Positions 16,894-32,106 of a stretch of 32,418 nt of DNA are shown piece after piece. Made by a program: the position numbers and the translations under genes. Each line of letters starts with the position of its first letter. The first letter of the stretch is position 1. The notes under the pieces were generated by a model that was not told where the DNA came from, ran no database searches, and saw only the letters and a list, made by a program, of their open reading frames with translations. This stretch comes from Methylophaga sp. (GTDB lineage Bacteria; Pseudomonadota; Gammaproteobacteria; Nitrosococcales; Methylophagaceae). The stretch is from assembly GCA_013139345.1 (NCBI GenBank), contig WTAY01000091.1, forward strand, positions 1-32,418, given 5' to 3'.

Positions 16894-17829
16894 ATGCCTG
16901 AGAAGTCCACCAATATGCATGCACACATCGCCACAGATACTATAGTGGTGGTTTCTCTTTCCCTACTTACGTGGTTTTTCGCTAGGTATTTTGATTTAAG
17001 CGAACGCTTTTATAACTGGAGTCGAGTCTGGGAGAATTATCAAGCTGATGAGTTGTTTTTCCCTCTCTTCAGCTTATCTTTAGGGCTTATTTGGTTCAGT
17101 TACCGTCGCTATCAACATGTAAAAATTAATGATTTTAATACTCGAATTCTACTCTCTGAAAACAGACGTTTAGTAAAAAGACTAACCGAAACCCAAGAGA
17201 ATGAGCGACTTTTCTTGGCACAAGAATTACATGATATTTTTGCTCAACACTTAACGGCCTTACGTACTAATGCCGAAACAATTCAAGCTTTAGTTGGCAA
17301 TGAAAAAATGGCCGCATTAAATGCGGCAAAAATGATTACAAATAATGTTGAGAAACTGCATCATATCACCCGTTCACTCCTAAAAACGCTACGCCCTCCC
17401 CCTCTTGATTTCGGTGTCGTCATGGCTATTGAAGATTTAGTGACCGAGTGGCAACACAATCATAGTTCGGTTCATTGCCAGCTTAATTTCCATGGCGACC
17501 AATCTGAACCTTGTGAAAAAAGCGTGTTGACCTTATATCGTACTATTCAGGAAGGTTTATCTAATATTTCTCGTCATAGTAAGGCTAAGAATGTTGTCAT
17601 TGATTTTTATTTTCCTACATCAACGAATGAGCATTCATCCACCTTAAAACTACGAATGATTGATAATGGTTCAGGCATTAACCTCGAACGTCTACAAGAA
17701 GGCTTAGGTCTTATTGGCCTTCGTGAACGTGCTCAAAGTCTAAATGGACAGTTCCGTATCTCAAATAATGTTCCCTCTGGCTGTATTCTAAATCTAATTC
17801 TTCCCATCAATGAAGCGGTTCAAAACTGA
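16894..17829 (+). CDS. Sensor histidine kinase, NarX/UhpB-type (HisKA_3)
   Basis: A membrane-bound kinase that phosphorylates the response regulator encoded directly after it. Two N-terminal membrane segments (about residues 16-32 and 55-70) enclose a short loop, DLSERFYNWSRVWENYQADELF, a pattern seen in many kinases of this class. The dimerisation/phosphoacceptor domain is LFLAQELHDIFAQHLTALR with His113. The ATPase domain has the N box EGLSNISRHSKAKN, DNGSGI and GLGLIGLRERA. There is no large periplasmic sensor, so the signal is probably sensed in the membrane or through a partner. Its stop shares one base with the regulator ATG. By context it could be related to MxaY, which governs the methanol dehydrogenase metal switch in some methanotrophs; that is unproven. 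Confidence 0.9.
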   Translation: MPEKSTNMHAHIATDTIVVVSLSLLTWFFARYFDLSERFYNWSRVWENYQADELFFPLFSLSLGLIWFSYRRYQHVKINDFNTRILLSENRRLVKRLTETQENERLFLAQELHDIFAQHLTALRTNAETIQALVGNEKMAALNAAKMITNNVEKLHHITRSLLKTLRPPPLDFGVVMAIEDLVTEWQHNHSSVHCQLNFHGDQSEPCEKSVLTLYRTIQEGLSNISRHSKAKNVVIDFYFPTSTNEHSSTLKLRMIDNGSGINLERLQEGLGLIGLRERAQSLNGQFRISNNVPSGCILNLILPINEAVQN

Positions 17830-18485
17830 TGGCAGCAGAAATAACGGTTCTTCTTGTTGATGATCACATTGCCGTACGTGAAGGTTATCGCTTATTACTG
17901 GCTCAATTTGATATTACGGTTATTGCCGAAGCGGATAGTGGTGAAAAAGCATTTAATGAATATCAAAGGCACAAACCCAACATTGTATTGATGGATTTAT
18001 CTATTAACGGTATGAATGGTCTGGATAGTATTGCTCGAATTATTTTGCACTATCCTGATGCTCGTATCATCGCGTTGTCTATGCATGATAATACCAATTT
18101 TGTCTCCAGATCGATTGAGAATGGTGCAATGGGTTATGTGCTAAAAAGTAATCCTTCCACAGTCTTACTTAAGGCGATTCATCAGGTTCACTACCACGCA
18201 AAAAAGTTTCTTTGCCCAGAGGTTTCTACACTTATTGCAATGCAGCATGTCAGGCCATCTGACGACAAAATAGCAAGTTTGACGACGCGAGAATATGCTG
18301 TTTTTTTACTCTTAACTGAAGGAAAAACACGCAATGAGATTGCCAGTTCATTATCGCTTAGCACGGGTACAGTCTCTAATAACAAAGTGCGAATTATGCA
18401 AAAACTAGCTGTTAACAACATGGTTGATTTATTAAAAATCGCACTGGAACATAAGACCCTTAAACACAATCAGATTATTCAATAA
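17829..18485 (+). CDS. NarL/FixJ-family response regulator
   Basis: A DNA-binding regulator activated by phosphorylation from the upstream kinase. The receiver domain (about residues 5-120) has the acidic pair DD at 11-12, the phospho-acceptor Asp56 in VLMDLSINGMNG, and a conserved Lys in YVLKSNPS. The LuxR-type helix-turn-helix is LTTREYAVFLLLTEGKTRNEIASSLSLSTGTVSNNKVRIMQKL. It shares one base with the kinase stop (TGATG), meaning tight coupling. The next gene, a TonB receptor, starts 114 bases downstream and is a natural candidate target. MxaB, a regulator of methanol dehydrogenase genes, is also of this family, but I cannot assign orthology from sequence alone. Confidence 0.9.
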   Translation: MAAEITVLLVDDHIAVREGYRLLLAQFDITVIAEADSGEKAFNEYQRHKPNIVLMDLSINGMNGLDSIARIILHYPDARIIALSMHDNTNFVSRSIENGAMGYVLKSNPSTVLLKAIHQVHYHAKKFLCPEVSTLIAMQHVRPSDDKIASLTTREYAVFLLLTEGKTRNEIASSLSLSTGTVSNNKVRIMQKLAVNNMVDLLKIALEHKTLKHNQIIQ

Positions 18486-18599
18486 TTACTATTTAGGACT
18501 TTCTCCTAGCTAAAACAGTTAACTCTGCATCACTCTTTTCCACCTCTCTTTCCGTATGATTTCAATGTGCAAAAAACATATTTTAATTAAGGAAAAACG

Positions 18600-20966
18600 A
18601 TGCAATTTAAACGCCACAAACTCTCGCTGTTAATTCATAGCGCAATGCTATTATCAGCGATATCAACCACCTCTCTCGCAAACAGTAACAACCCAGCCTC
18701 AGCAATGGAATTACCAACATTAAGCGTTATCAGCACTACGCCACTGCCTGGCATTGGAGTTCCCGTTGAAGACTATGCTGGAAATATTAAAGTCATTAGT
18801 GCCGAAACCATTGAAAATGAAAACGCACTAGATATGGCTGAATTAATGTTTAAAAACATAGGGAGCATTGACATTAATTCAGCACAAAACAATCCTTATC
18901 AAAATGATGTTAATTACCGTGGTTTTCTAGCTTCTCCCCTTGTCGGTAGCGCCATTGGTCTTTCCGTTTATGTTGATGGACAACGTGTTAACGAAGGGTT
19001 TGGCGACACCTTAAACTGGGATCTCATTCCCGACTTTGCATTGTCCAATATTGTGCTTATCCCCGGTTCTAATCCTTTATTTGGTTTAAATACATTAGGG
19101 GGAGCAATATCAGTACATACCAAAAATGGCTTTAATTTTGAAGGAACAGAAGTCGAGCTCTCAGCAGGTGAAAATGGGCGACGTCAAGGCACTATTCAAC
19201 ATGGCGGCAACAGTGGCAATGTTGATTGGTATGTTGGCGCAACTAAGTTTGAAGAAGATGGCTGGCGTGTTAACTCTCCATCAGATGTAAAACAGTTCTT
19301 CGGTAAAGTGGGCTGGGAATCAGATACAACCGATTTAGACCTAAGCTACACCCATGTTGACACAGATTTGATCGGTAATGGTTTTGTTGCAGAAAGTCGC
19401 CTAAATAGCCAAGGCAGGGATGCGATTCATTCCTACCCTGATCAAACTGAAAATAAAATGGACAATCTTAACCTGAATGCCTCTCATTGGCTCAATGATA
19501 ATACACTGGTGGCCGCCAATGCTTTTTATCGAAATTATAAAAGAAAAACCTTGAATGGAGATGTTGAAATTGGCTGTGCAGTTGATGTAGCTGCATTGGG
19601 TGATGATTTTGAAGCTGAAGATACACATCTCACCTCTTGTATTCCGGGAGCAAGCGCTGCTGGGACTCAATATGAAGATGATCTAGGTGTTATACAAACG
19701 GCTATTGCGGCTGATGAATTTGAAGTTGAAATAGAAGGTGAAGAACGCCGCACTGAAACTGAAACAGATTCATGGGGTACTAGTTTACAGTTTACACACA
19801 GTCATCAAATTGCATCCATGGATAATCAATGGACAATAGGTGCAAGCTATGACAAAGCAGAGACAGACTTCCTTAGTATTGAAGCTGAAGAAGGTGATGT
19901 AGATCTAAGTAACGGAACAATCATCGCTGGCACAGTAGATGAGGCTGAAGTTGGTGTCGATATTAAAACAGAGCGTATCAATTATGCCTTAATGATTTCT
20001 GACACCTTAAATTTATCAGATAAAACAGCATTAACACTAGCTGGACGTTATCAACATTCTGAAGTAAAAATTGATAATTTTAATCCTGGTGATGAAAAAC
20101 TAGAGGGTGACCATTCATTTTCACGCTTTAGCCCGGCGGTATCATTGAGCCATAAATTACAAGAAGATGTAACACTATACGGAAGCTATAACGAAAGTTT
20201 TAGAACACCAACGGCTGCCGAACTAACCTGTGCCGATCCTAATGATCCTTGTAAATTACCTAACTCATTTGTTGCCGATCCACCACTTGATCCTGTTATC
20301 GGTAAAACCATAGAAATCGGGGCTCGCGGTAAATTAGTCTCATCAATCAATTGGTCTATTGCTGCTTTTAGAACAGAATTAGAAGATGATCTATTGTTCA
20401 CACTTGCTGATAATGCCGGTGGTGGTTATTTTATTAATGTTGATGAAACTCGCCGCCAAGGTCTTGAGCTTGGTTTAGATGGCAAAGTAAATAGCTTAAA
20501 CTGGTATGGTAACTATAGTTTTATTGATGCCACATTTGAATCTGATGAAACATTAGCCAGCGTCGTTGACCCAAATGGCATTAACGTGCAAGCAGGTGAC
20601 CAATTGCCGGCGATTCCTCGCCATAACATCAAGCTTGGGGCTGATTATGCATTCACACCAACATTTAATATGGGTGCAAGCATGCAATATGCTGGCAGCA
20701 GCTATATGCGAGGCGATGAAGGCAATGAGCTACCTAAAATTAATAGTTACACAACGTTCAACCTCAATGCGCGTTACAAACCACATAAAATGGTTCAACT
20801 GTGGGCTAAAGTTGATAATGTATTTGATCGTGAATATGAAAATTCGGGCATTAGAAACTTTAATTTTTATGAGCTACCTGAGGATGGTGAAGTAATCCAA
20901 GAAGAACGCTTTGTTTCACCTGGCGCGCCACGCTCATTCTGGGCAGGTGTAAAAGTAAGTTTTTAA
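18600..20966 (+). CDS. TonB-dependent outer membrane receptor, candidate metal or metallophore uptake
   Basis: A TonB-driven outer membrane transporter of 788 residues. A signal peptide (to about residue 27, ...STTSLANSN) precedes a TonB-box-like LPTLSVIST. The plug (about residues 55-180) carries VYVDGQRVNEGFGDTLNWDLIP and PGSNPLFGLNTLGGAISVHTKNGF. The 22-strand-type barrel ends in the usual aromatic residue (FWAGVKVSF). The plug wording resembles receptors tied to lanthanide uptake in methylotrophs (LutH, LanA) as I remember them. Long loops are very acidic (DEFEVEIEGEERRTETETD), and two cysteine pairs lie in the loops (CAVDV...TSC, CADPNDPC). The ATG follows AAGGAAAAACG. Placement between the two-component pair and the methanol dehydrogenase genes supports a metal-uptake role, as inference. 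Confidence 0.88.
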   Translation: MQFKRHKLSLLIHSAMLLSAISTTSLANSNNPASAMELPTLSVISTTPLPGIGVPVEDYAGNIKVISAETIENENALDMAELMFKNIGSIDINSAQNNPYQNDVNYRGFLASPLVGSAIGLSVYVDGQRVNEGFGDTLNWDLIPDFALSNIVLIPGSNPLFGLNTLGGAISVHTKNGFNFEGTEVELSAGENGRRQGTIQHGGNSGNVDWYVGATKFEEDGWRVNSPSDVKQFFGKVGWESDTTDLDLSYTHVDTDLIGNGFVAESRLNSQGRDAIHSYPDQTENKMDNLNLNASHWLNDNTLVAANAFYRNYKRKTLNGDVEIGCAVDVAALGDDFEAEDTHLTSCIPGASAAGTQYEDDLGVIQTAIAADEFEVEIEGEERRTETETDSWGTSLQFTHSHQIASMDNQWTIGASYDKAETDFLSIEAEEGDVDLSNGTIIAGTVDEAEVGVDIKTERINYALMISDTLNLSDKTALTLAGRYQHSEVKIDNFNPGDEKLEGDHSFSRFSPAVSLSHKLQEDVTLYGSYNESFRTPTAAELTCADPNDPCKLPNSFVADPPLDPVIGKTIEIGARGKLVSSINWSIAAFRTELEDDLLFTLADNAGGGYFINVDETRRQGLELGLDGKVNSLNWYGNYSFIDATFESDETLASVVDPNGINVQAGDQLPAIPRHNIKLGADYAFTPTFNMGASMQYAGSSYMRGDEGNELPKINSYTTFNLNARYKPHKMVQLWAKVDNVFDREYENSGIRNFNFYELPEDGEVIQEERFVSPGAPRSFWAGVKVSF

Positions 20967-21086
20967 CATAAACAACTTAGGACTAAATCATAGTTTTTGA
21001 ACGATTAATTCTGATTTATAGTAACGATGAAGCAGATAAAATAACTACAGTTTATTGAATTCAGCTTCATTAAATGTCTCATGTTT

Positions 21087-21115
21087 GGCCAGATAATTTA
21101 TCTGGCCTTTTTTTT
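21087..21115 (+). terminator. Rho-independent terminator after the TonB receptor
   Basis: GGCCAGATA-att-TATCTGGCC followed by eight T's, 120 bases after the receptor stop. The ORF-track start at 21081 for the next gene would place its 5' end inside this terminator, which supports the later ATG at 21132. Confidence 0.92.
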
Positions 21116-21131
21116 AATTGAGGAATTTAGA

Positions 21132-21932
21132 ATGGCCATCTCACTTAAATACTCACTCACTCTCATTCTTATTTTTTTATCACTGAATCAACGCTGCATC
21201 GCCGATGACAGCGATACAACTCGTGTTTGGCAACAATTAAAACATGAATATTTTGGTCATCGACTTATCAGTGATAACGCCACTGATCTATTATTTATTG
21301 AGGTCCCCAACAAGGTTGAAGATGCAGCGATCATGCCCATCACCATAAAATCACTCTCAGCCCAGACACCTCAACATCATATAAAAACATTACACTTAAT
21401 TGTTGATAATAACCCTCAGCCTTACTCTGCTGAATTTCACCTTTCACCTAAACTTGGTCCGATTAATATCTCAACCCGAATTAGAATGGATAACTTCAGC
21501 AATGTACGAGTCATTGCAGAAATGAATGATAATAGCTTACATATGGTAAATCGCTTCGTCATCGCCTCTGGCGGTTGCTCTGCTCCAGCAAGTAAAGACC
21601 CTGAAAAATCTCTCGCTAGACTAGGCAAGGTGAAAATGCGAATGCGTGAACCAATTATTGGTCAAGAAACAACCGTACAAATCATTGTCAGCCACCCCAA
21701 CTCAAGTGGCATGCAATTTAACAAAGCATCACGCCAGTTTATTCCCGCTCATTATGTCACCGATATTAATATCAGCTTTAATGATGAAGCCTTGCTAACA
21801 GTTAAGACAGGCATCACTCTCAGCGAAGATCCCAGTATTCGATTTACGTTTACCCCTCAAGTGTCAGGAACCTTAACTGCCAAAATTATCGACAGTAAGC
21901 AAACAATCTACCTTGTTGAAAAGAAAATATAA
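21132..21932 (+). CDS. Quinoprotein dehydrogenase-associated SoxYZ-like carrier
   Basis: An exported protein of 266 residues resembling a fusion of SoxY and SoxZ, of the kind found next to PQQ-dependent alcohol dehydrogenases. A signal peptide (to about Ala24, ...NQRCIADD) precedes a SoxY-like beta domain whose end carries the cysteine motif ASGGCSAP (Cys149), reminiscent of the swinging-arm GGCGG of SoxY. The SoxZ-like immunoglobulin domain begins near VKMRMREPIIGQ. Its exact function in methanol oxidation is unknown. I choose ATG 21132, preceded by GAGGAAT, over the track start, which lies within the upstream terminator. It is separated from the TonB receptor by that terminator and converges on mxaL. 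Confidence 0.83.
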   Translation: MAISLKYSLTLILIFLSLNQRCIADDSDTTRVWQQLKHEYFGHRLISDNATDLLFIEVPNKVEDAAIMPITIKSLSAQTPQHHIKTLHLIVDNNPQPYSAEFHLSPKLGPINISTRIRMDNFSNVRVIAEMNDNSLHMVNRFVIASGGCSAPASKDPEKSLARLGKVKMRMREPIIGQETTVQIIVSHPNSSGMQFNKASRQFIPAHYVTDINISFNDEALLTVKTGITLSEDPSIRFTFTPQVSGTLTAKIIDSKQTIYLVEKKI

Positions 21933-22149: not shown

Positions 22150-23160
22150 TCAATTTAGACTACGCCTAACCCACCGCCAAACACCGAATGACCTAATCAC
22201 CTGCCAAAACCAACCCAGCAATACCAGAACGGTCGCCAGCAAACCATAAATCCAACGCGCATCACGATCTGCTATCGCATACTTGCGATATTCCACATTA
22301 TTTAAAGCATTGATGGCATCTCTGGGGGTATGCACTCGGGCTAAATCATAGCCAATAGCTTTAGAAATAGTTTGCATCACTTTTCTGCCATAGCTTGATT
22401 GGTGTTCTCTTACCCTATCTAACACTCCTTCTAATGCTTTTTCGCCAGGCGATAGGGTGCGTACATAGGCTAATAAGTCGGGATAGTTGCCTTGTAATAC
22501 GGCTTCTTCTTTTGTCCAATAGCCTATAATTTCATCGCGTTCATTAAATCTGGGGATGGGCTGTAAGGCATCACCGCCGACACCGAGCAATAGCCCTTTT
22601 ATTTGCCCTCGTCGTTTTATCAATGCATTCACATACGGTATATCTTTATGCGGCGCTTCATCGCCATCGGTAATAAAAACAAGGTTAAGATCGCGTTGCT
22701 TGGCATCATCTGTTGCCATGGCGATGGTTTCTGTCAGCAGTGAGTCACCAATCCACCGCATGCGTCTATCCAATCCAGTGACCATTTTTTCTATTGCAGG
22801 AAAGTGCCTACACACTTCTAGCGGTTCAAATAACATCACTGCTTCATCGCCTGCAAATAAGCTAACAGCAACGCGTGAACCACAGGGCAAGCTTGCCATG
22901 CTTTCTCGCACGGCAATTTTGGCTAAGGTGAACCTGTCCGTTTGTGGCTTGGGATAATTCACATCAGTGACATTCATACTTTCGCTGATGTCGATAACGA
23001 ATAAGGTATCTTGCACGAGGCTATTGAGCTTCATTTGGGGGTTAAACCAAACAGGCGCTAATGCAATGGCGGCGAGAATATAAAATACTCCGCCATTTTG
23101 AATAGCATGCCGTAAATGAACACGGAAATGCCCCCACCAATGCTTGAAGTTATGGTGCAT
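22150..23160 (-). CDS. mxaL: MxaL, von Willebrand factor A-domain methanol oxidation protein
   Basis: MxaL is one of the accessory proteins needed to make active methanol dehydrogenase, with a proposed role in metal insertion. The protein has an N-terminal membrane segment (FYILAAIALAPVWF), a VWA domain with the MIDAS motif DISES at 57-61 and TDGDE, and a C-terminal membrane segment (WIYGLLATVLVLLGWFW). Length of 336 residues agrees with the family. It is the last gene of the mxaRSACKL run, 50 bases after mxaK. The mxaD, mxaE and mxaH genes that often follow are not present; a convergent unit lies downstream instead. Confidence 0.88.
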   Translation of the reverse strand: MHHNFKHWWGHFRVHLRHAIQNGGVFYILAAIALAPVWFNPQMKLNSLVQDTLFVIDISESMNVTDVNYPKPQTDRFTLAKIAVRESMASLPCGSRVAVSLFAGDEAVMLFEPLEVCRHFPAIEKMVTGLDRRMRWIGDSLLTETIAMATDDAKQRDLNLVFITDGDEAPHKDIPYVNALIKRRGQIKGLLLGVGGDALQPIPRFNERDEIIGYWTKEEAVLQGNYPDLLAYVRTLSPGEKALEGVLDRVREHQSSYGRKVMQTISKAIGYDLARVHTPRDAINALNNVEYRKYAIADRDARWIYGLLATVLVLLGWFWQVIRSFGVWRWVRRSLN

Positions 23161-23210
23161 TATAAAAACCCTTTCAAGAAGGAGAAGGCTACCTTTAATA
23201 GATTCAACAT

Positions 23211-23807
23211 TTAAGGCAGGCCTCGGCGTGTATTATCTTTCATTAACGCACGTCCATTTTGCTTAAAGGGATCAATACCAATGGTGTAACCATCTATCAT
23301 AGCACTGCCCGCACCGCGTTTTTGTGGACTGATTCTATCAAGTCGTTCTAAGTTATAACGCGCTGCATAGAAGTCAGGCTCAAGGCGTAATGCTCCTTTA
23401 TAATATTCTCGTGCTAATAGGATTCGAGCAACCAAATGTCGGCTACCATGGGCGTCATCTAAATCAGCTTCGGCTGTGTTGGCATATAAATTCCCCAGCG
23501 CGTGTTTTGCTAAGGCTTGTAGGTGTGTAGCATTGCTGGCTTCAGCTACATCAAACGCTTTTACGGCGCGGGCTAGTTTACCTTCATTGACCAATAAATA
23601 GCCCATGCTATAGGCTTCAAGCGTATTGTCATTAGTTAATTCATGGGTGAGTAGAGATTGATCAGCGTAGGCAGTATTTAATCGCACTGCTTGTTGCCAT
23701 TGACTAAAGAAAAACACGGCCACAAGACAAGATACTGCCGCTGCCGCTAAGATAATATGGGGGAAGTAGTCTAATAAATATTGCCTGAATTTAATTCGTT
23801 TATTCAT
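23211..23807 (-). CDS. mxaK: MxaK methanol oxidation accessory protein
   Basis: A small protein with one N-terminal membrane segment (about residues 18-36, HIILAAAAVSCLVAVFFF) and a periplasmic helical region that looks TPR-like (YSMGYLLVNEGKLARAVKAFDVAEASN). Mutations in mxaK abolish methanol dehydrogenase activity in model methylotrophs; its biochemical task is not known. The ORF track begins at a TTG inside mxaC. I choose the ATG four bases after the mxaC stop because GGAG in the mxaC tail lies upstream of it and the membrane helix is then placed normally. Identification rests mainly on position between mxaC and mxaL together with architecture. Confidence 0.82.
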   Translation of the reverse strand: MNKRIKFRQYLLDYFPHIILAAAAVSCLVAVFFFSQWQQAVRLNTAYADQSLLTHELTNDNTLEAYSMGYLLVNEGKLARAVKAFDVAEASNATHLQALAKHALGNLYANTAEADLDDAHGSRHLVARILLAREYYKGALRLEPDFYAARYNLERLDRISPQKRGAGSAMIDGYTIGIDPFKQNGRALMKDNTRRGLP

Positions 23808-23811
23808 GTAC

Positions 23812-24816
23812 TTATTTTCTCCAAGCCTTGATTTCAATTTGCTTTAACCAAAACAATACACCAAGAAATAGCATGGCGATCATATAAAAATAAACGGCAT
23901 AATCTTGTCTTGGTAAGCGAAATTCATAGCGGGTGGATTTATTGGTTGCCCTCCCTATTTCTGCCACTGCTCGTTGCAAGCCTTGCTCGCTATTCACTTC
24001 AAATGCTTGATAGGGCATGCCCAGCGATAGGAAGAGTTGATTTAATGCCACATTGGGATCGACCGCGCCTTCATCTTTGCTGATGTCCTCTTCAAATTCC
24101 AAGGAAAAATCATAGCCCGTATGCACATAGATCCACATCAATTCTGCTTGATATTCTTTGAAGCGTTCTCGCAATATTTCTTTGTCTTCTTCTTTGATTT
24201 TAGTATCACCATCCGACACCAATAAAATCAGTCGTGTTGCTGTGTAGGGTCTATCTTGAAAATAATCCAAGCCCATTTCTAAGGCACGATGCAAAGCGGT
24301 GAAACCTGAGCTATTGCCTTCTGCACTTTTCAATGCTGCGCGCGCCAGCTCTCTATCGGCTGATAATGGGGCTACCGCGATTGGTGAGGCATTAAACACC
24401 ACCACACCAAAGGTATCGCCGGGGCGTTGATCCATCAATTTAAGCAATACGGTGCGTGATGCTTCTATTCGGCTGAGTGTCACTTTCCCCCGAGCGCGCT
24501 CGACGGGATCTTGCTCTTCTAAGCTTTCCGCCATGCTGCCACTGCGATCTAATACGATCACAATTTCAGCACCTTTGCCTGTTCTTGTTTGGGTGCCACC
24601 TTCGGTAAACGGTGCGGCGGCAGCAATCACTAAACTTACTAGCGTTAACACAGCCAACATCCGCACGCCCCAACGCAATAAGTTAGACACCGTATCCTTC
24701 GTCCAATCTTCTAATCCCGGATAGCTAAACTGCTTCACCCCATAAGAAATTAACGGCAATAAGCAAAATGGCAGTAGCCATAATAATTCGGGCTTGAAAA
24801 AATGAAGAGCATTCAT
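23812..24816 (-). CDS. mxaC: MxaC, von Willebrand factor A-domain methanol oxidation protein
   Basis: A membrane protein with two N-terminal helices (ELLWLLPFCLLPLISYG and MLAVLTLVSLVIAAAAPF), a periplasmic VWA domain and a C-terminal helix (DYAVYFYMIAMLFLGVLFWL). The MIDAS motif is intact: DRSGS at 90-94, with SDGDTK further on. MIDAS sites bind a divalent metal, which suits the proposed role of MxaA, MxaK, MxaL and MxaC in delivering metal to methanol dehydrogenase. It starts on the base directly after the mxaA stop, and mxaK follows after four bases, so the genes are one tightly packed operon. Confidence 0.9.
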   Translation of the reverse strand: MNALHFFKPELLWLLPFCLLPLISYGVKQFSYPGLEDWTKDTVSNLLRWGVRMLAVLTLVSLVIAAAAPFTEGGTQTRTGKGAEIVIVLDRSGSMAESLEEQDPVERARGKVTLSRIEASRTVLLKLMDQRPGDTFGVVVFNASPIAVAPLSADRELARAALKSAEGNSSGFTALHRALEMGLDYFQDRPYTATRLILLVSDGDTKIKEEDKEILRERFKEYQAELMWIYVHTGYDFSLEFEEDISKDEGAVDPNVALNQLFLSLGMPYQAFEVNSEQGLQRAVAEIGRATNKSTRYEFRLPRQDYAVYFYMIAMLFLGVLFWLKQIEIKAWRK

Positions 24817-25764
24817 TTACGATTTTCTTGCCGCATGTCTAAATAACCTTTCTGACACTGTTGCACGCTTAATCCACGCCATTGTCTCAGCCACAGAAAT
24901 ATTATGGTCTTGTGCGTTTGTCTCATGAAATGCACGCCATGAATCATCAAAAAATTGAGTAATCGTTTCTTTATCAACTGACAAATAAGGTGCTTTCTCA
25001 AATAATATATCGAGGGTATTCGGATATAAACTCTGACCTGAACTGCCTGCTAAACCTGCATGAATGGCGCGTAAATCATCTGCCGTGAATTGTGTTTGTT
25101 TTATTGTTTCTTGTTGGCGTAGTTGACGTGCCAATAAGGTCATCGCACCCGGATGGCGTGGCAGCCATTTAATACGATCTTGCAACCATAACCACGCTAG
25201 CGCCAACAATATTCCCAACACTAAATACAAGAAAGCCAGATTTAGGGGCATGGCTTCATCAAAACGAGGCGGGGTGATAATAGGGCGTAATGTTTCTTCT
25301 GACGTTAATTGCTCAGGCAACACCGGTGATAAATAAAAACCTTGCTCGGGAATGGTGATAATCAAGGGTTCTCGATCATCGTCGGCGACTTCTACGGCTA
25401 AGGTTTGCAAAATAATAGCCGGGATTTGAATTATTTGTGCTTCGCCAACCGTGCCGAAAAGCTGCCAGGTGAAATCAAGGCTAATGAATTCACGGTCATC
25501 GGCCAATTTTTCTTTATTTGCAGTGACATCACGTAAATCTAACCATGCATTAATCGGCCCTTGGAGTGGCACGCTGTTTAAATCAAAAATATAGCCTTGT
25601 TCTAAGGTGAATTCGGCATGCATGGTAATGATGTCGCCTAAGGTATAACCATGATTACGCATGTTAACGGTCACATTTACATCTGCCGAATTAATGGTGG
25701 TTCCCTCAGCAAACAGTGAGGTCATTATCAGTGATAACAATAAAAATAATAGTGATCTCATCAT
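24817..25764 (-). CDS. mxaA: MxaA methanol oxidation accessory protein
   Basis: MxaA is required for active methanol dehydrogenase in model methylotrophs, apparently for calcium incorporation. The 315-residue protein has a signal peptide (MMRSLLFLLLSLIMTSLFAEG) and a beta-rich periplasmic domain (about 25-170). A single membrane helix (LNLAFLYLVLGILLALAWLWL, near 175-195) and a cytoplasmic helical tail follow. Its ATG overlaps the mxaS stop by four bases (ATGA), and mxaC follows with no gap. Assignment rests on architecture and position; no catalytic motif is visible. Confidence 0.87.
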   Translation of the reverse strand: MMRSLLFLLLSLIMTSLFAEGTTINSADVNVTVNMRNHGYTLGDIITMHAEFTLEQGYIFDLNSVPLQGPINAWLDLRDVTANKEKLADDREFISLDFTWQLFGTVGEAQIIQIPAIILQTLAVEVADDDREPLIITIPEQGFYLSPVLPEQLTSEETLRPIITPPRFDEAMPLNLAFLYLVLGILLALAWLWLQDRIKWLPRHPGAMTLLARQLRQQETIKQTQFTADDLRAIHAGLAGSSGQSLYPNTLDILFEKAPYLSVDKETITQFFDDSWRAFHETNAQDHNISVAETMAWIKRATVSERLFRHAARKS

Positions 25765-26615
25765 GCGTCTTTTCCCATAAAATACGCCGTGAGTGACGCG
25801 GCATTAAATTCACCATTCACCACAAAAGGCCGTGTTCCCAACACCGTACACGCACTATTCACCGATTTTATATGCTTCTCTCGAGCAGCACTCATTTGGT
25901 CGCGCACACTTTGTCGCATCCACACAAATTGCCCCGCCCCTGTTTCTGAATCACGCAAAATAGCGATACCACGTTTAGGTTGCTCATCAATTTCAGTGGG
26001 GTCTTGCAACATAACAGGCACCACATCATGATGACTGAGTTTTTTTAATAAAGATTTAAGCTTGCCTTCACCCCAACGAAAATCAGATATTATAAAGACC
26101 AAACATGGGTTTTGAGGCAGATATGGCACCACATCAAACAAGCCATCGGCATGCGAACCTTCTAGTTTCAAATCAGCAAAATGCTGTTGCAACCACACCC
26201 ATGCACTGCGGTTTGCTTTGGGTGGCAACATTCGTTTTTTATTCATTTTCTCGCCAGCCACATATACCCCAAAGGCATCACCTGAGCGATAGGCCGACAG
26301 AGCTAATTGCGAGGCGACTTCTTTTGCCACGTTAAAGCGATTCACCTTACCGATATAAGACATTGATGCCGAGGTATCGACTAACACAATCACTTTTAAA
26401 GCCGAGTTTAAATAGAAATCTCGCACCCATACATTCTTAAATGGATCGCGTGCACTGGTGCGTAAATCTAAACGTCTTGGATCAGGGCGCTCCCGTAACG
26501 GAACAACCGATCGAAGCTGGTCACCTGCACCAGGCACCACGCCATGTCCCGCACCGGGTTGATGTCCAGATGGTCGCCAGCGAATGTGATAATGAATGAG
26601 AGGTTGTTGTGCCAT
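25761..26615 (-). CDS. mxaS: MxaS, DUF58-family protein
   Basis: MxaS belongs to the DUF58 family, whose members work with MoxR ATPases in assembling or activating metalloenzymes. The N-terminus HYHIRWRPSGHQPGAGHG...LVPLRERPDPRRLDLRTSARDPF-like arrangement is characteristic (here VVPLRERPDPRRLDLRTSARDPF). A VWA-like site, DTSAS at 80-84, is also visible. Length is 284 residues, with no signal peptide or membrane segment, so it is cytoplasmic. It starts four bases after mxaR, consistent with a MoxR-DUF58 pair, and overlaps mxaA by four bases. Confidence 0.9.
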   Translation of the reverse strand: MAQQPLIHYHIRWRPSGHQPGAGHGVVPGAGDQLRSVVPLRERPDPRRLDLRTSARDPFKNVWVRDFYLNSALKVIVLVDTSASMSYIGKVNRFNVAKEVASQLALSAYRSGDAFGVYVAGEKMNKKRMLPPKANRSAWVWLQQHFADLKLEGSHADGLFDVVPYLPQNPCLVFIISDFRWGEGKLKSLLKKLSHHDVVPVMLQDPTEIDEQPKRGIAILRDSETGAGQFVWMRQSVRDQMSAAREKHIKSVNSACTVLGTRPFVVNGEFNAASLTAYFMGKDA

Positions 26616-26619
26616 ATTA

Positions 26620-27636
26620 TTATGGCGTAGGAACGCAGTTCAAAATCGCCTGTGTATACGCCCGCGCTAACCAACCGCGTTGCAATTCGTAAATTGGCGT
26701 AAAAAATACTCTATGCGCCACCACCTGATGAAATACTACCGCCACATCTTGTGGCATCAATTCTAGACGACCATCAAGCCATGCAGATACCTTTGCTGCA
26801 CGCACCAACATACTTGTACCTCGAGGCCCCATGCCCGCCACCATCAACTCATCCATTTCAACATCAGGTAGCTGTACACCATACTTTTCTGGATTATGCG
26901 TTGCTCGCCGCAAATGTTCTACAAAGTTTTGCACTGCCTCTCCCGCAGTTACCGCACTTTGAATCATCGGTGCAAACATAGTGAGCGCTTTGAAATCAAG
27001 GTTCCCTGATGTGACCGACTCGATCAGTGTATCTGTATCATGGAACCGACTATCAAATGTCAGTGACTTATGCACCTCGCTATCATCATCAGGGGCAATT
27101 TCTAACTCCATCAAAAAACGATCTCGCGCCGCACCCGGCAACTCAAAGGTTTCTTCTTTTTCTACCGCATTGCGATCAGCAAACACTAATAAATGTGGGA
27201 ATTGATATTCTTTATTAAAAGCCGTAATACTACGCTCAGCCATCACCCGTAACAATAAAGAATGCACTTGCGGACGAGCGCGGTTAATTTCATTAAAAAA
27301 GAAAACGGATAGCTCTTTACCCTGCGATAAAATTGGCCCAGGGTCAACACGTGGCTTGCCATCTTGATCAATGAAAGTGTGATAAATCAAATCTTGAGGC
27401 ATCAAATCAATCGTACCTTCCATTCGTTGATAACCACCACCTAAACCTCGTGAAGCGGCACGTAGAAGAGTGGTTTTCCCCACCCCCACATTGCCTTCAA
27501 GCAATACATGTCCACGAGCAAAAATTGCAATCACTAATGAGCGAATAACAGGCGCCAATCCCAATACAACCCCATTCAACTCTTGTTCATAAGACACAGC
27601 ACGGCTACGCCAATCTTCAAGTATATTTTCCGACAT
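26620..27636 (-). CDS. mxaR: MxaR, MoxR-type AAA+ ATPase
   Basis: MoxR ATPases act as chaperones that mature specific protein complexes; this type serves methanol dehydrogenase. The AAA+ core has Walker A GNVGVGKT at 48-55, Walker B SVFFFNEINRARP, and a sensor region in LLVFADRNAVEKEETFELPGAARDRFLMEL. The ORF track begins 45 bases upstream. I choose the ATG of MSENILEDW because AGGAAG lies four bases before it. At 338 residues it is normal length. It heads the operon mxaRSACKL. The 421 bases before it contain the xoxF terminator, so it must have its own promoter. Confidence 0.92.
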   Translation of the reverse strand: MSENILEDWRSRAVSYEQELNGVVLGLAPVIRSLVIAIFARGHVLLEGNVGVGKTTLLRAASRGLGGGYQRMEGTIDLMPQDLIYHTFIDQDGKPRVDPGPILSQGKELSVFFFNEINRARPQVHSLLLRVMAERSITAFNKEYQFPHLLVFADRNAVEKEETFELPGAARDRFLMELEIAPDDDSEVHKSLTFDSRFHDTDTLIESVTSGNLDFKALTMFAPMIQSAVTAGEAVQNFVEHLRRATHNPEKYGVQLPDVEMDELMVAGMGPRGTSMLVRAAKVSAWLDGRLELMPQDVAVVFHQVVAHRVFFTPIYELQRGWLARAYTQAILNCVPTP

Positions 27637-27978
27637 AGAACTTCCTACAATTTTATAAAATAGCTTAGCTATAATTATCACTCGAAAACCAGTTATTTAT
27701 ACAGGGAGTAACTCCTTAAATATAAAACTAAAGGGAAAAATATGGGATTAAGACCTCACTTACCATCCGTGTCTATTAATTTCGCCATAATAGCCATATC
27801 CTCCTCTCCCTATGCAGAAAACATAATCCAGAATCTCCGATAGCGTGGCTATACCCATAATCAATGAATATAAACTACGCCTGCAGGATGGCAGGGAAAC
27901 CGAAGATATTAACCGTCACGTTAAGTTTTCCGCTTGCTTTGGCTGGGGCCCACAACAAGGTTTTACCCTGATTTTAAA
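27637..27978. other. Intergenic gap between xoxF and mxaR, no supported gene
   Basis: This stretch should hold the mxaR promoter on the minus strand; GATAAT and TATAAA sequences occur, but I see no clear -35 partner. A short palindrome, GGAGTtACTCC, lies near 27705. Two small ORFs are present: 33 codons on + (27742-27843) and 32 codons on - (27858-27760, with CIGRGGYGYYGEINRHG), neither convincingly coding. A fragment of the TATATACCC repeat lies at 27850-27868. mxaF operons normally have mxaJ, mxaG and mxaI immediately before mxaR; none is detectable here. Confidence 0.5.
27850..27868 (+). repeat. Fragment of the TATATACCC end module
   Basis: Tatacccataatcaatgaa differs at one of 19 bases from the reverse complement of the module at 101-127. 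The adjoining sequence does not match either repeat body, so it looks like a remnant. Confidence 0.45.
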
Positions 27979-28057: not shown

Positions 28058-29836
28058 TTACAGGCTAAATACGCTTAAAACACCACCTAAGTTAGTCCAG
28101 CTAGATAGCGCTTTGTAAGCACCTACCGCACCTAGACCATCAGAGTCATTTTCTAAGCTAGGAATAGCCATACCGATACCAGCCCAACCACCTACACCAG
28201 AAAGGATAGAGATGTACTGCTTACCTTCATGTTTGTAAGTATTCACATTACCGATGATACCTGATGCTGTTTTGAATCTCCAAAGCTCACGACCTGATTG
28301 TGCATCTACCGCTTTAATGTAACCTTCTAATGTACCGTAGAAAACAACATCAGTAGCAGTCGCTAGAGCACCAGACCATGCTGAGAAACGTTCTGGGTTA
28401 GACCAAACGATCTTACCAACACGTGCATCCCAAGCGATGAAGTTACCTAGGTGTGTACCACCTGGCGCTGGGTACATGTTTAATGTCGCACCAACATAAG
28501 GTTGACCTGATGTAAATTCAACTTCAAATGGTTCGTAATCCATACATACGTGGTTTGTTGGCACATAATGCAAACCAGTACGTGGGGAGTAAGCAGCTGG
28601 TTGCTGATCTTTAGAACCTAACGCAGCAGGACAAATACCTGTTGTGTTAACGTCTGCGCCATTACGATGTGTTGAATATTTAGCGACACGATCATGAAGA
28701 CCTGTTTTAAGGCTAACACCGTTAGACCAGTTAACAGCTGGATCAAATTTCTCAGCAACTAATAATTCACCACTTACGCGATCAAGAGTGTAACCAAACC
28801 CGTTACGATCGAAATGTACAACCGTTTTACGCATTTTTCCTTTCACTTTTTGATCTTGCAAAATAACTTCATTCACACCATCATAATCCCACTCATCATG
28901 AGGCGTCATTTGGTAGATCCATTTAGCAGCACCGGTGTCTAAATCACGTCCCCAAAGAGACATTGTCCACTTGTTATCACCAGGACGTTGAGCTGGATTC
29001 CACGTTGATGGGTTACCGTTACCGTAATAGAACATGTTCAAATCAGGATCGTAAGAATACCAACCCCATGTTGTACCACCACCGATTTTCCATTGGTCGC
29101 CTTTCCACGTTTTCAAAGAAGAATCTTTGCCAACTGGTTTCAACATAGACATTGTTTTCTTCGGATCAACAATCATTTCATCATCAGGACCAACGCCGTA
29201 GGCAGTCCATGCTTCTTTACCATCTAAGCCATACGCTTTAACGTAACCACGTACACCAAACTCACCACCAGAAACACCTACTAGCACTTTATCTTTAAAT
29301 ACATGTGCTGCACCCGTTGAAGTAGCGCCTCGTGTTGCAGTGTCACGCTTGTGAGACCAAATTGGCGCCCCCGTGTTCATATCTAAAGCAACTAATACTG
29401 TATCAGCTTGTGCTAAGAAGATTTTACCATCACCATACGCTAAACCACGGTTAACAGTGTCACAACACATCACTGGAACAGTTTCGTCGTAGTCTTGTTT
29501 TGGTTCATATTTCCATTTTATTGCGCCGTCGTTGTTTAAATCTAAAGCGAAAACGATGTTTGGAAATGCAGTGTGAACATACATAGTACCGTCGATAACA
29601 AGTGCGTTACCTTCATGACCACGCAAAACACCTGTTGAGAATGTCCACGCCATTTTCAAATCAGCAACGTTGTCTTTAGTGATTTGAGCGAGCTTGCTGT
29701 AACGTTGGTTATTGTAATTACCAGCAGCAGATACCCAGTTATTTTCATTTTCTTGCATTGTACGAATTTCATCAGCCACTGCTACATTTGTAGCCGCCAA
29801 TGTCATCATCGCAATTGATAGTGCTTTCAGCTTCAT
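28058..29836 (-). CDS. xoxF: Lanthanide-type PQQ methanol dehydrogenase XoxF
   Basis: XoxF oxidises methanol (to formaldehyde or formate) in the periplasm with PQQ and a lanthanide ion, passing electrons to a c-type cytochrome. A signal peptide (1-21, ...ATNVAVA) precedes an eight-bladed propeller of 592 residues in total. Visible active-site features are the adjacent cysteines CC at 124-125, Glu192 in GGEFGVRG, Asn275 in GNGNPSTWN, and the pair Asp317 and Asp319 in [10 protein letters not shown]. The second Asp marks the lanthanide enzymes; calcium MxaF has Ala there. The ATG follows AAAGGAATAACT. It has a private terminator, and the leader contains two inverted repeats. No xoxG or xoxJ lies beside it. 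The assignment to XoxF rather than MxaF is firm; the clade is not determined. Confidence 0.96.
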
Positions 29837-29876
29837 AGTTATTCCTTTCTATGTCTTAATTATTAATCGTCAGTGA

Positions 29877-29914
29877 TATGTGTATAAATTCACATAGTCA
29901 CGCGAACTGTGACT
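29877..29914 (-). promoter_or_regulatory. Two adjacent inverted repeats in the xoxF leader
   Basis: TATGTG-N8-CACATA (29877-29896) is joined to AGTCAC-N7-GTGACT (29896-29914), 41-78 bases before the xoxF ATG. They could be operators for a dimeric regulator or hairpins in the 5' leader. No confident -35/-10 pair was found. A further weaker stem, AGCTCC-N11-GGAGCT, lies at 29948-29970. The rest of 29837-30052 has no gene. Confidence 0.45.
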
Positions 29915-30052
29915 TTATCCCGAACGCCACTTTGAAGCACTAGGAGGAGCTCCCCTTGTGAGTAGGAGCTTCTCCCATCATCATTAAGAACAGATACTAG
30001 AATATGATTCCTCTTCTTCCTAGATCCTTATAGCAGAAGCGATAACAACTAT

Positions 30053-31084
30053 TTATGGCACAATGTCAGCGTCCAACTCATCGAAGTTATAACGGTCTAT
30101 TTGCACAAAGCCACCATCTTTCATTTCGGGAACTTTATGAATTCTAACCTCACCAACACGAATACTGCCGTCATCATCATTTAGCCAAAAATCAATATCA
30201 TAGTATTCGTTTGTACTGCCATGCTTACGAAAATCTGTGCAGGCAAAGTAACGGCCATCTTCTATAAGTCGTCGTACAGGTTGATGCACACCGACAAACT
30301 CTAAGCTGATGGTCTCACCTGTTTTTTCGTCTGTAAGGATGTATTCACCCTTACTTTGAAGACGTTGTTCAAGCACATTTGTTTCAATCGCTGAAATCAC
30401 TTCCCATGCTTTTTTTTCCTCTGATTCACCAGGGTGCTCTGACGCAGGGATCCACCACCAAGGACGAGGGTCTCTCATCCAAGTAACCCATTTACCCTCA
30501 TAGCGTCTAGGTGCTTTATAAATCCGCTCTTCCATCACAATTAACTGTCCATTTTCAGGTTTCACCCAAAAATCAATCAGATACTTTTTATTATCATCGC
30601 CTTCTAAATGGAATTTCACACTCGGGAAATAACCATAGCCATGTAACCGTCGAGCGAAATCAATCTCATCGTATATTAACGCAAGGTCTCGCCCGAGAAT
30701 GGCATCTCGTAAAGGAAATGAACCACCATGTGATCGCGCTTTATCCGTAATATAATGATCAATAAATTTGTTCACATCCTTTGTCGAAAATAAGCCCATT
30801 TGACCTTGTGTTTTTTTCAGGCTATTAACGGCATAAAACGCTTTCGCTCGCTCCACATTTCTAGCGGAGTCTCCGATGAATACTGATTTTGCATCCTCAC
30901 TCTGGAAACAATAGGTTTTGCTATCATCGCTCTGCCATATAACATCACAATCTGTCTTAATAACTTTGCCTTCAGCCAAGCCCATAACACACAAGCCACC
31001 AAATTCTGCACCGTCAATATCTCCAGCATGACTGGAGCTTATCAAACCACATAGTAATAATATATTAAGTAATAGTATTCTCAT
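30053..31084 (-). CDS. Exported YHS-like domain protein with duplicated C-terminal module
   Basis: I do not recognise a named family for the whole 343-residue protein. A signal peptide (1-20, ...SSSHA) is followed by a YHS-like metal-binding region (about 28-84), with Cys32, Cys46 and Cys59 in GGLCVMGLAEG, TDCDVIW and KTYCFQSEDAK. The remainder holds two related units (about 146-192 and 270-319). They share RRL...G.YF....F...G....Y.IDFW......G.i.v.E.RI.K.P, joined by a tryptophan-rich linker (DPRPWWWIP). It lies 216 bases upstream of xoxF in the same direction and after a terminator that follows the beta-propeller gene. A periplasmic metal-handling or XoxF-associated role is a guess from the YHS domain and position. 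Confidence 0.75.
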   Translation of the reverse strand: MRILLLNILLLCGLISSSHAGDIDGAEFGGLCVMGLAEGKVIKTDCDVIWQSDDSKTYCFQSEDAKSVFIGDSARNVERAKAFYAVNSLKKTQGQMGLFSTKDVNKFIDHYITDKARSHGGSFPLRDAILGRDLALIYDEIDFARRLHGYGYFPSVKFHLEGDDNKKYLIDFWVKPENGQLIVMEERIYKAPRRYEGKWVTWMRDPRPWWWIPASEHPGESEEKKAWEVISAIETNVLEQRLQSKGEYILTDEKTGETISLEFVGVHQPVRRLIEDGRYFACTDFRKHGSTNEYYDIDFWLNDDDGSIRVGEVRIHKVPEMKDGGFVQIDRYNFDELDADIVP

Positions 31085-31099
31085 CGTTATTCTCCTAAT

Positions 31100-31126
31100 A
31101 AAAAAGCCCCTTCAAATGAAGAGGCT
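31100..31126 (-). terminator. Rho-independent terminator after the beta-propeller gene
   Basis: On the minus strand AGCCTCTTC-att-TGAAGGGGCT with a T-run lies 12 bases after the stop of the upstream gene and about 16 bases before the ATG of the YHS protein. The two genes therefore appear to be separately expressed, or linked by read-through. Confidence 0.85.
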
Positions 31127-31137
31127 CTAATTGGCTC

Positions 31138-32106
31138 CTAAGGGATATACACACCCCAAGGCATCTGCCCAACAGATATCGTTTCTATCACCTCTAACGT
31201 AGAGGTATCAATCACGGACACACTATTAGAACGTCCATTAGCCACATAAAGTTTAGAGTCATCTGATGTTAAGCCCATATTCCAAGGTCGCTCTCCAACG
31301 GGAATGCTCTTAATAACAAAGTCACCTTCTGTATCAATAACATCAACCGTATGAGATTTACCCGCAGAGATATACACTCGCTTACCATCGGATGACACTT
31401 TGACACCATTTGAGCGTTCCCCCGTATTAACCGCAGTCTCAAATGTCCAATCAATCGTGTTCCAAACCTCAGTGACATTTGCACTTTCATTGGCAACATA
31501 TAGCTTCAATCCATCAGGTGAAAACCCCATACCCCTAGGATGACCAGCCGCAGGTAATGTTCTGATAATTCTTGGATTGATAGCATCAATCACATCAATT
31601 GAATCTGAACCTTCTTGGCTGGCAACAACAACTTTACCATCGGGTGAGTAAACACAATGTTCAGGTGCATCTCCCATTACTTTAATCGATGCTGTTATTT
31701 TAAAGCTGGCAACATCAATGAAAGAAACGGTCGCCGCCCCCTCTTCACATACCACCAATGTTTTGCCATCAGGTGAAATATCTAAGCCTTCTGTGCCTTC
31801 ACCAACTTCAATTTTATTTACTATTTGACGGCTTGTAAGATCAAGCTGAATCAACTCAGCGTCATCGGCATCAACCACATATAAATACTGGCCTGCATGA
31901 CCAATAACCGTCGCATTAATTTCCTCACCTAAACGACCTGAAGCAGGGAGTTTTCCAACGACTTTATCCGTTGCCGTATTAATCAACGAAATAGTGGCAT
32001 CTTTTTCATTAATTGCATAAGCAATCTCGCCCTGCATCGACGTCACAGGCATGCTTTGACATGCTGATAGTGCCAATGCCAAGGGTAATAATTTAAATAG
32101 TTTCAT
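31138..32106 (-). CDS. YVTN-type beta-propeller lipoprotein, PQQ-catabolism associated
   Basis: A repeat protein of 322 residues with a lipoprotein signal (MKLFKLLPLALALSAC, lipobox LSAC, Cys16), probably anchored to a membrane facing the periplasm. About seven repeats of some 42 residues carry the YVTN pattern, for example LYVVDADDAELIQLDL, LYVANESANVTEVWNT and LYVANGRSNSVSVIDT. They form a beta-propeller without enzyme motifs. Proteins of this kind are often found beside PQQ-dependent dehydrogenases and are annotated as PQQ-dependent catabolism-associated; their role is unknown, perhaps scaffolding. The ATG follows AAAGGAAATCTG. Its promoter region directly abuts the repeat module at 32145. 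Confidence 0.85.
   Translation of the reverse strand: MKLFKLLPLALALSACQSMPVTSMQGEIAYAINEKDATISLINTATDKVVGKLPASGRLGEEINATVIGHAGQYLYVVDADDAELIQLDLTSRQIVNKIEVGEGTEGLDISPDGKTLVVCEEGAATVSFIDVASFKITASIKVMGDAPEHCVYSPDGKVVVASQEGSDSIDVIDAINPRIIRTLPAAGHPRGMGFSPDGLKLYVANESANVTEVWNTIDWTFETAVNTGERSNGVKVSSDGKRVYISAGKSHTVDVIDTEGDFVIKSIPVGERPWNMGLTSDDSKLYVANGRSNSVSVIDTSTLEVIETISVGQMPWGVYIP

What the first reader, a model, noticed from the sequence alone, without database searches (positions are those of the whole stretch)
30053..31084. Uncharacterised exported YHS-like protein beside xoxF
A signal peptide and a three-cysteine YHS-like region are seen directly upstream of the dehydrogenase gene. YHS domains are associated with metal binding. 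A periplasmic metal-binding protein next to a lanthanide enzyme is a candidate metallochaperone or new XoxF partner.
Basis: partly seen in the sequence, partly recalled or inferred. Interest (0 to 1): 0.66.

Follow-up and report, generated by a model that had tools for sequence, protein, structure and literature searches.

The report
Unstudied partner of lanthanide methanol dehydrogenase
This gene encodes an exported protein, never characterised as far as I could find, made of a cysteine-bearing YHS-like domain plus a duplicated domain of no named family, and relatives of it recur inside the gene clusters for one type (XoxF1) of rare-earth-dependent methanol dehydrogenase in several groups of methanol-eating bacteria, so it is probably a helper of that enzyme.

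Summary
The ORF at 30053-31084 (-) is a real, exported 343-aa protein under strong purifying selection (dN/dS 0.04-0.08), directly upstream of a XoxF5-type dehydrogenase gene. Its N-terminus is a divergent YHS domain with three invariant cysteines, but the canonical YHS FCSxxC cysteines are absent. Survey: the tandem domain, with or without YHS, sits in clusters xoxF1 - xoxJ(ankyrin fusion) - [this] - xoxG - beta-propeller in 21 of 31 genomes that carry it (Methylophaga, other Gammaproteobacteria, a Burkholderiales MAG, Methyloceanibacter, Hyphomicrobiaceae). YHS-only proteins fill the same slot in three others. In 369 gammaproteobacterial genomes, the three with XoxF1 all carry it and only one of the other 366 does. 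The 'metallochaperone' half is untested and, for lanthanide through the YHS cysteines, unlikely. It is optional: lost or absent in some XoxF1 genomes. Best guess: a periplasmic maturation/assembly helper working with XoxJ and XoxG.

The parts
30053..31084 (-). gene for the exported YHS + tandem-domain protein (343 aa)
   Evidence: ORF and translation; purifying selection, omega 0.04-0.08
31025..31084 (-). signal peptide, residues 1-20 (predicted by eye; cleavage SHA|G)
   Evidence: sequence and hydropathy
30815..31015 (-). YHS-like domain, residues 24-90, with invariant Cys32, Cys46, Cys59
   Evidence: NF041384 and PF04945 hits at family level; alignment A5
30470..30793 (-). C-domain repeat 1, residues 98-205
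   Evidence: hhalign repeat 1 vs repeat 2: probability 99.5, E=2.3e-23
30428..30469 (-). linker motif PWWWIPASEHPG; W209-W211, P213, E216, H217, P218, G219 invariant
   Evidence: alignment A1
30056..30451 (-). C-domain repeat 2, residues 212-343; invariant H267, R271, C282, D284, D296, D298, W300, H316, K317
   Evidence: AF2 model of the unit, pLDDT 88.9
28058..29836 (-). xoxF5-type lanthanide methanol dehydrogenase gene, downstream neighbour
31138..32106 (-). YVTN beta-propeller protein (TIGR03866-like, below cut-off), upstream neighbour, conserved in xoxF1 clusters
31103..31128 (-). terminator-like hairpin between the propeller gene and this gene
   Evidence: a similar hairpin is seen in G009
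22150..27681 (-). mxaRSACKL-like block downstream of xoxF5 (names by gene order and homology to L008/L017 blocks)

Best explanation
It is a periplasmic accessory protein of the XoxF1-type lanthanide methanol dehydrogenase system, retained in Methylophaga between the XoxF1 cluster and a XoxF5 gene. SHOWN: export signal; divergent three-cysteine YHS domain; tandem-duplicated domain of no named family; conserved gene order xoxF1 - xoxJ(ankyrin) - [tandem domain and/or YHS] - xoxG - propeller in several methylotroph lineages; optional presence. INFERRED: it works on the dehydrogenase, XoxJ or cytochrome as a maturation/assembly helper. The tandem NTF2/cystatin-like domain would dock the client, with repeat 2 carrying the conserved polar site. 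The YHS thiols would supply an auxiliary redox or soft-metal function that some lineages supply from a separate YHS protein or dispense with.
For: Cluster position in 21 of 31 genomes that carry the tandem domain. In 369 Gammaproteobacteria, XoxF1 in 3 genomes and the tandem protein in the same 3 plus G000 (Fisher p=4.8e-7, not corrected for relatedness). In 103 Hyphomicrobiaceae, a homologue (tandem or YHS) in 12 of 26 XoxF1 genomes versus 2 of 77 others (p=4.2e-7). YHS-only proteins sit between xoxJ and xoxG in G479, G511 and G512. XoxF1 identity supported by best PDB hit 7o6z and the diagnostic Asp (GGDEF) in nearly all copies (PMC8546591). Purifying selection.
Against: Fourteen of 26 XoxF1-bearing Hyphomicrobiaceae have no detectable homologue. 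The gene is a remnant in G014 and absent between propeller and xoxF5 in G004 and apparently in G022, so it is not essential. Ten genomes have only copies away from xox genes (one of these 7 kb from xoxF1). XoxF1 was not found in G000 itself (78% complete). Single-unit relatives sit beside a sterol-desaturase-like hydroxylase, not a dehydrogenase. No interaction or biochemical data.
Confidence: 0.55

Rival explanations
1. Lanthanide metallochaperone: it binds Ln3+ in the periplasm and loads XoxF.
For: Periplasmic, beside Ln-dependent enzymes; repeat 2 has an invariant polar/acidic set (D284, D296, D298, H267, H316). A tandem-domain periplasmic Ln-binding protein (two PepSY domains) is known from another methylotroph (PMC11845868).
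Against: No EF-hand or PepSY hit in Pfam. YHS thiols are soft ligands. The invariant polar set of repeat 2 is shared by single-unit proteins next to a hydroxylase, so it need not be Ln-specific.
Confidence: 0.12
2. Thiol-redox factor: the three YHS cysteines act on the dehydrogenase's vicinal disulfide (CC next to PQQ) or on the XoxG haem site.
For: An odd number (3) of invariant cysteines in an exported domain; XoxF1 and XoxF5 carry the CC pair (CCDT).
Against: No CXXC motif or thioredoxin-like fold. Many operon-linked homologues lack the YHS domain entirely (L016, L018-L020, L024, G452, G453, G456).
Confidence: 0.15
3. Structural or electron-transfer subunit of the XoxF1-XoxJ-XoxG complex rather than a maturation factor.
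For: Gene sits between xoxJ and xoxG; MxaF-MxaJ complexes exist in the PDB (9ism).
Against: Optional presence; no cofactor motif such as CxxCH; the M. thermophilum xoxF1, xoxJ and xoxG genes carry consecutive locus numbers with no extra gene (PMC7907005).
Confidence: 0.13
4. Unlinked function; neighbourhood is hitchhiking or chance.
For: Solo copies exist: the YHS-tandem + YHS + YHS loci of Methyloceanibacter-type genomes.
Against: Same cluster slot in distant lineages, and co-occurrence statistics.
Confidence: 0.05

Closest known systems
YHS domain (Pfam PF04945) / NCBIfam NF041384 YHS (seleno)protein
   Same: Family-level profile hits; CxM ... YxF ... F..dP pattern; length about 60 aa
   Different: Matches the second half of NF041384; lacks the canonical FCSxxC pair; carries its own invariant C46 and C59; window protein scores below curated cut-offs
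XoxJ/MxaJ, XoxG and other methanol dehydrogenase accessory proteins
   Same: Periplasmic, encoded in the same operons
   Different: No sequence relation to XoxJ (solute-binding fold), cytochromes, SoxYZ-like carriers or propellers; optional
LanPepSY (lanthanide-binding, two PepSY domains, Methylobacillus; described in PMC11845868)
   Same: Periplasmic methylotroph protein with two tandem small alpha/beta domains
   Different: No PepSY profile hit in any homologue; the modelled unit is a helix plus 7-8 strands
NTF2-like / cystatin-like folds
   Same: Helix plus bent antiparallel sheet in confident AF2 models
   Different: No significant structural match (best E 0.01 for the full model, 0.05 for the unit; TM 0.44 or less to NTF2 proteins)

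Membership tests
YHS domain | Profile match to PF04945/NF041384 | tested here: met
   20/31 homologues hit NF041384 (best 1.3e-7), 7 hit PF04945; the window protein alone only E=0.0019, below curated cut-off
YHS domain | Canonical metal-type cysteines (CxM plus FCSxxC; motif from own knowledge) | tested here: not met
   CxM present (C32), but the FCSxxC positions are Q61 and A65; C59 aligns with an aromatic of YYF
YHS domain | Metal binding | not testable with these tools
   needs purified protein
XoxF1-cluster accessory protein | Recurrent position in xoxF1-xoxJ-xoxG clusters across lineages | tested here: met
   21 of 31 genomes
XoxF1-cluster accessory protein | Cluster dehydrogenase is truly XoxF1 type (best hit 7o6z; diagnostic Asp in GGDEF) | tested here: met
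   exceptions Asn in L008 and Ser in one L024 copy
XoxF1-cluster accessory protein | Required for XoxF1 activity | not testable with these tools
   dispensable in some genomes; needs genetics
Lanthanide metallochaperone (LanM / LanPepSY-like) | EF-hand or PepSY domain | tested here: not met
   no such Pfam hit in any member
NTF2-like superfamily | Significant structural match | tested here: inconclusive
   topology similar, Foldseek E at or above 0.05, TM at or below about 0.44

The most novel reading that the evidence does not exclude
A new protein family (tandem NTF2/cystatin-like domain, with or without a three-cysteine YHS domain) is a dedicated, previously unrecognised maturation or metal/cofactor-loading factor of XoxF1-type lanthanide methanol dehydrogenases, acting with an ankyrin-fused XoxJ.
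Probability: 0.3. Interest if true: 0.75.

Novelty: new variant of a known kind. Interest (0 to 1): 0.52.

Why it matters
How lanthanides and PQQ are inserted into XoxF enzymes, and what XoxJ does, are open questions (own knowledge). A conserved extra gene in the XoxF1 operon, present in genera with cultured members (Hyphomicrobium, Methyloceanibacter, Methyloligella, Methylophaga), is a concrete candidate for deletion and pull-down work. I found no paper in the searched library that links a YHS protein, or an ankyrin-fused XoxJ, with XoxF.

Tried and rejected
Plasmid records held no homologue. PDB sequence searches gave nothing for the whole protein or the C-domain; the only significant YHS-domain hits were eukaryotic adenylate-kinase-9-type proteins. 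Full-model Foldseek found nothing significant. An EF-hand-like reading of 'NDDDGSIRVGE' in repeat 2 was rejected: homologues do not keep the acidic positions. The idea that it is a known MxaE/MxaH could not be tested for lack of a reference sequence; papers mentioning those genes were not opened for sequence. Rfam found only a tRNA. Membership in PepSY, SRPBCC (MxaD-like) or SoxYZ was not supported by Pfam.

Full report
OBSERVATION. The ORF at 30053-31084 (-) encodes 343 residues with a signal-like N-terminus and a ribosome-binding AGGAG. It is preceded by a YVTN beta-propeller gene (31138-32106) and followed, 216 bp on, by a dehydrogenase gene (28058-29836) whose best solved relatives are XoxF 6oc5 and 6dam. 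That enzyme has WDYD and a Gly where XoxF1 enzymes have Asp, so it is XoxF5 type. A block in the order of mxaRSACKL follows. The gene is under strong purifying selection: dN/dS 0.04-0.08 in six pairs of Methylophaga copies.

DOMAINS. The window protein alone has no Pfam hit and only a weak NCBIfam hit to the second half of the YHS (seleno)protein model, E=0.0019. Across the family the YHS assignment is firm: 20 of 31 members hit NF041384 (best 1.3e-7) and 7 hit PF04945. C32, C46 and C59 are invariant in 21 YHS-bearing sequences, including stand-alone YHS proteins. The classical FCSxxC cysteines are not there (Q61, A65). Residues 98-343 are a tandem duplication (hhalign 99.5%, E=2.3e-23) with no Pfam or PDB sequence relative. 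AlphaFold2 models are confident (pLDDT 87.7 whole, 88.9 for repeat 2): each unit is a helix plus a bent antiparallel sheet, closest in topology to NTF2/cystatin folds but without a significant Foldseek match. The invariant polar set (H267, R271, C282, D284, D296, D298, H316, K317) is in repeat 2; repeat 1 keeps only part of it.

RELATIVES. A genome-collection scan found homologues only in methylotroph-type genomes and MAGs: Methylophaga, Hyphomicrobium, Methyloceanibacter, Methyloligella, Hyphomicrobiaceae, one Burkholderiales and one unclassified Pseudomonadota MAG. Profile searches added Gammaproteobacteria, Hyphomicrobiaceae and other Hyphomicrobiales. Neighbourhoods were annotated by tblastn with a fixed query set and HMMs of the three domains. 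The recurrent arrangement is xoxF1 - xoxJ fused to ankyrin repeats - [tandem domain and/or YHS] - xoxG - (gap) - propeller. The enzyme there is XoxF1 type: best PDB hit 7o6z, the first XoxF1 structure, and the diagnostic Asp in GGDEF in all but two copies examined (PMC8546591). The ankyrin-fused protein matches XoxJ 6onp and MxaJ 9ism in its first half.

COUNTS. Of 31 genomes with the tandem domain, 21 have a copy in or contiguous with such a cluster: G000, G008, G018, G159, G341, G106, G414, G410, G411, G415, G416, G417, G419, G452, G453, G456, G802, G789, G703, G590, G624. G000 is counted for xoxG1/propeller/xoxF5 only. Ten have copies only elsewhere (one 7 kb from xoxF1, one a fragment). 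In G479, G511 and G512 a YHS-only protein fills the xoxJ-xoxG slot. In Methyloceanibacter-type genomes the operon copy lacks YHS while a second locus carries YHS-tandem, YHS, YHS. Co-occurrence: 3/3 versus 1/366 in Gammaproteobacteria, and 12/26 versus 2/77 in Hyphomicrobiaceae. These p-values ignore shared ancestry; one search is not an unbiased sample, whereas searches did not use XoxF as bait.

DISPENSABILITY. In Methylophaga G014 only a remnant remains between propeller and xoxF5. In G004 propeller and xoxF5 lie about 400 bp apart with no such gene, and G022 shows no trace in 260 bp. G009 shows the gene's first codons at a contig end. Fourteen of 26 XoxF1-bearing Hyphomicrobiaceae have no detectable homologue. 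It is an optional accessory.

THE WINDOW COPY. The contig ends 312 bp upstream of the propeller, so the XoxF1 part of the cluster is not visible. In the close relatives G018/L008 and G008/L007 the order continues xoxG1, xoxJ-ankyrin, xoxF1. G000 holds a second copy on contig C103 (xoxG1-propeller-YHS-xoxF5; locus L058), either a duplication or strain contamination; XoxF1 itself was not found in this 78%-complete bin. Adjacency to XoxF5 is therefore a Methylophaga feature, and XoxF1 is the partner suggested by the other lineages.

MECHANISM. Shown: exported, conserved, modular, operon-linked. Inferred: a periplasmic helper in maturation or assembly of XoxF1 with XoxJ and XoxG. A lanthanide chaperone is possible through repeat 2 but unsupported; via the YHS cysteines it is chemically unlikely. 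A thiol role on the vicinal disulfide of the dehydrogenase is a specific but weakly supported rival, since many operon copies lack YHS.

NOVELTY. No held paper joins YHS or ankyrin with XoxF clusters. I rate it a new variant of a known kind (an undescribed accessory family of a known enzyme system), interest about 0.5.

Noticed in passing
L008:3563-5296, L007:4359-6011 and other xoxF1 clusters: The XoxJ-like protein of XoxF1 clusters is fused to a C-terminal ankyrin-repeat domain (Ank_2 E=3e-31 in L008; the homologous region recurs in the other clusters); no paper on it was found.
   Followed up: partly
window 21081-21932 and L012:2184-2933: SoxYZ fusion protein (SoxY + SoxZ Pfam hits) next to the mxa/xox cluster, as in known quinoprotein-associated SoxYZ-like carriers.
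   Followed up: partly
window 16894-20966: Histidine kinase, LuxR-type response regulator and a TonB-dependent receptor beside the methanol cluster; the receptor is a candidate for lanthanophore or metal uptake.
   Followed up: no
L046:7347-8954, L047:5682-7109, L048:7125-8875: Single-unit relatives of the C-domain lie next to a histidine-rich membrane hydroxylase (sterol-desaturase-like) in three Gammaproteobacteria of different families.
   Followed up: partly
window and L058 (G000 contig C103): Two copies of propeller-YHS-xoxF5 in one bin with uneven synonymous divergence (dS 0.47 for xoxF5, 0.96 propeller, 1.7 YHS gene), suggesting recombination or a mixed bin.
   Followed up: partly
window 31103-31128 (-): Terminator-like hairpin between propeller and YHS gene, just before its Shine-Dalgarno; a similar one in G009.
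   Followed up: no
L133, L136-L141: Methyloceanibacter-type genomes carry a separate three-gene locus YHS-tandem, YHS, YHS away from xox genes.
   Followed up: partly
L008:1552-3456; L024 one of two xoxF1 copies: The Asp said to be diagnostic of XoxF1 (PMC8546591) is Asn or Ser in these two copies.
   Followed up: no
window 29840-29980: Conserved upstream region of xoxF5 with repeated GGATAAAGTC-like motif, also in G004 and G014; possible regulator site.
   Followed up: no
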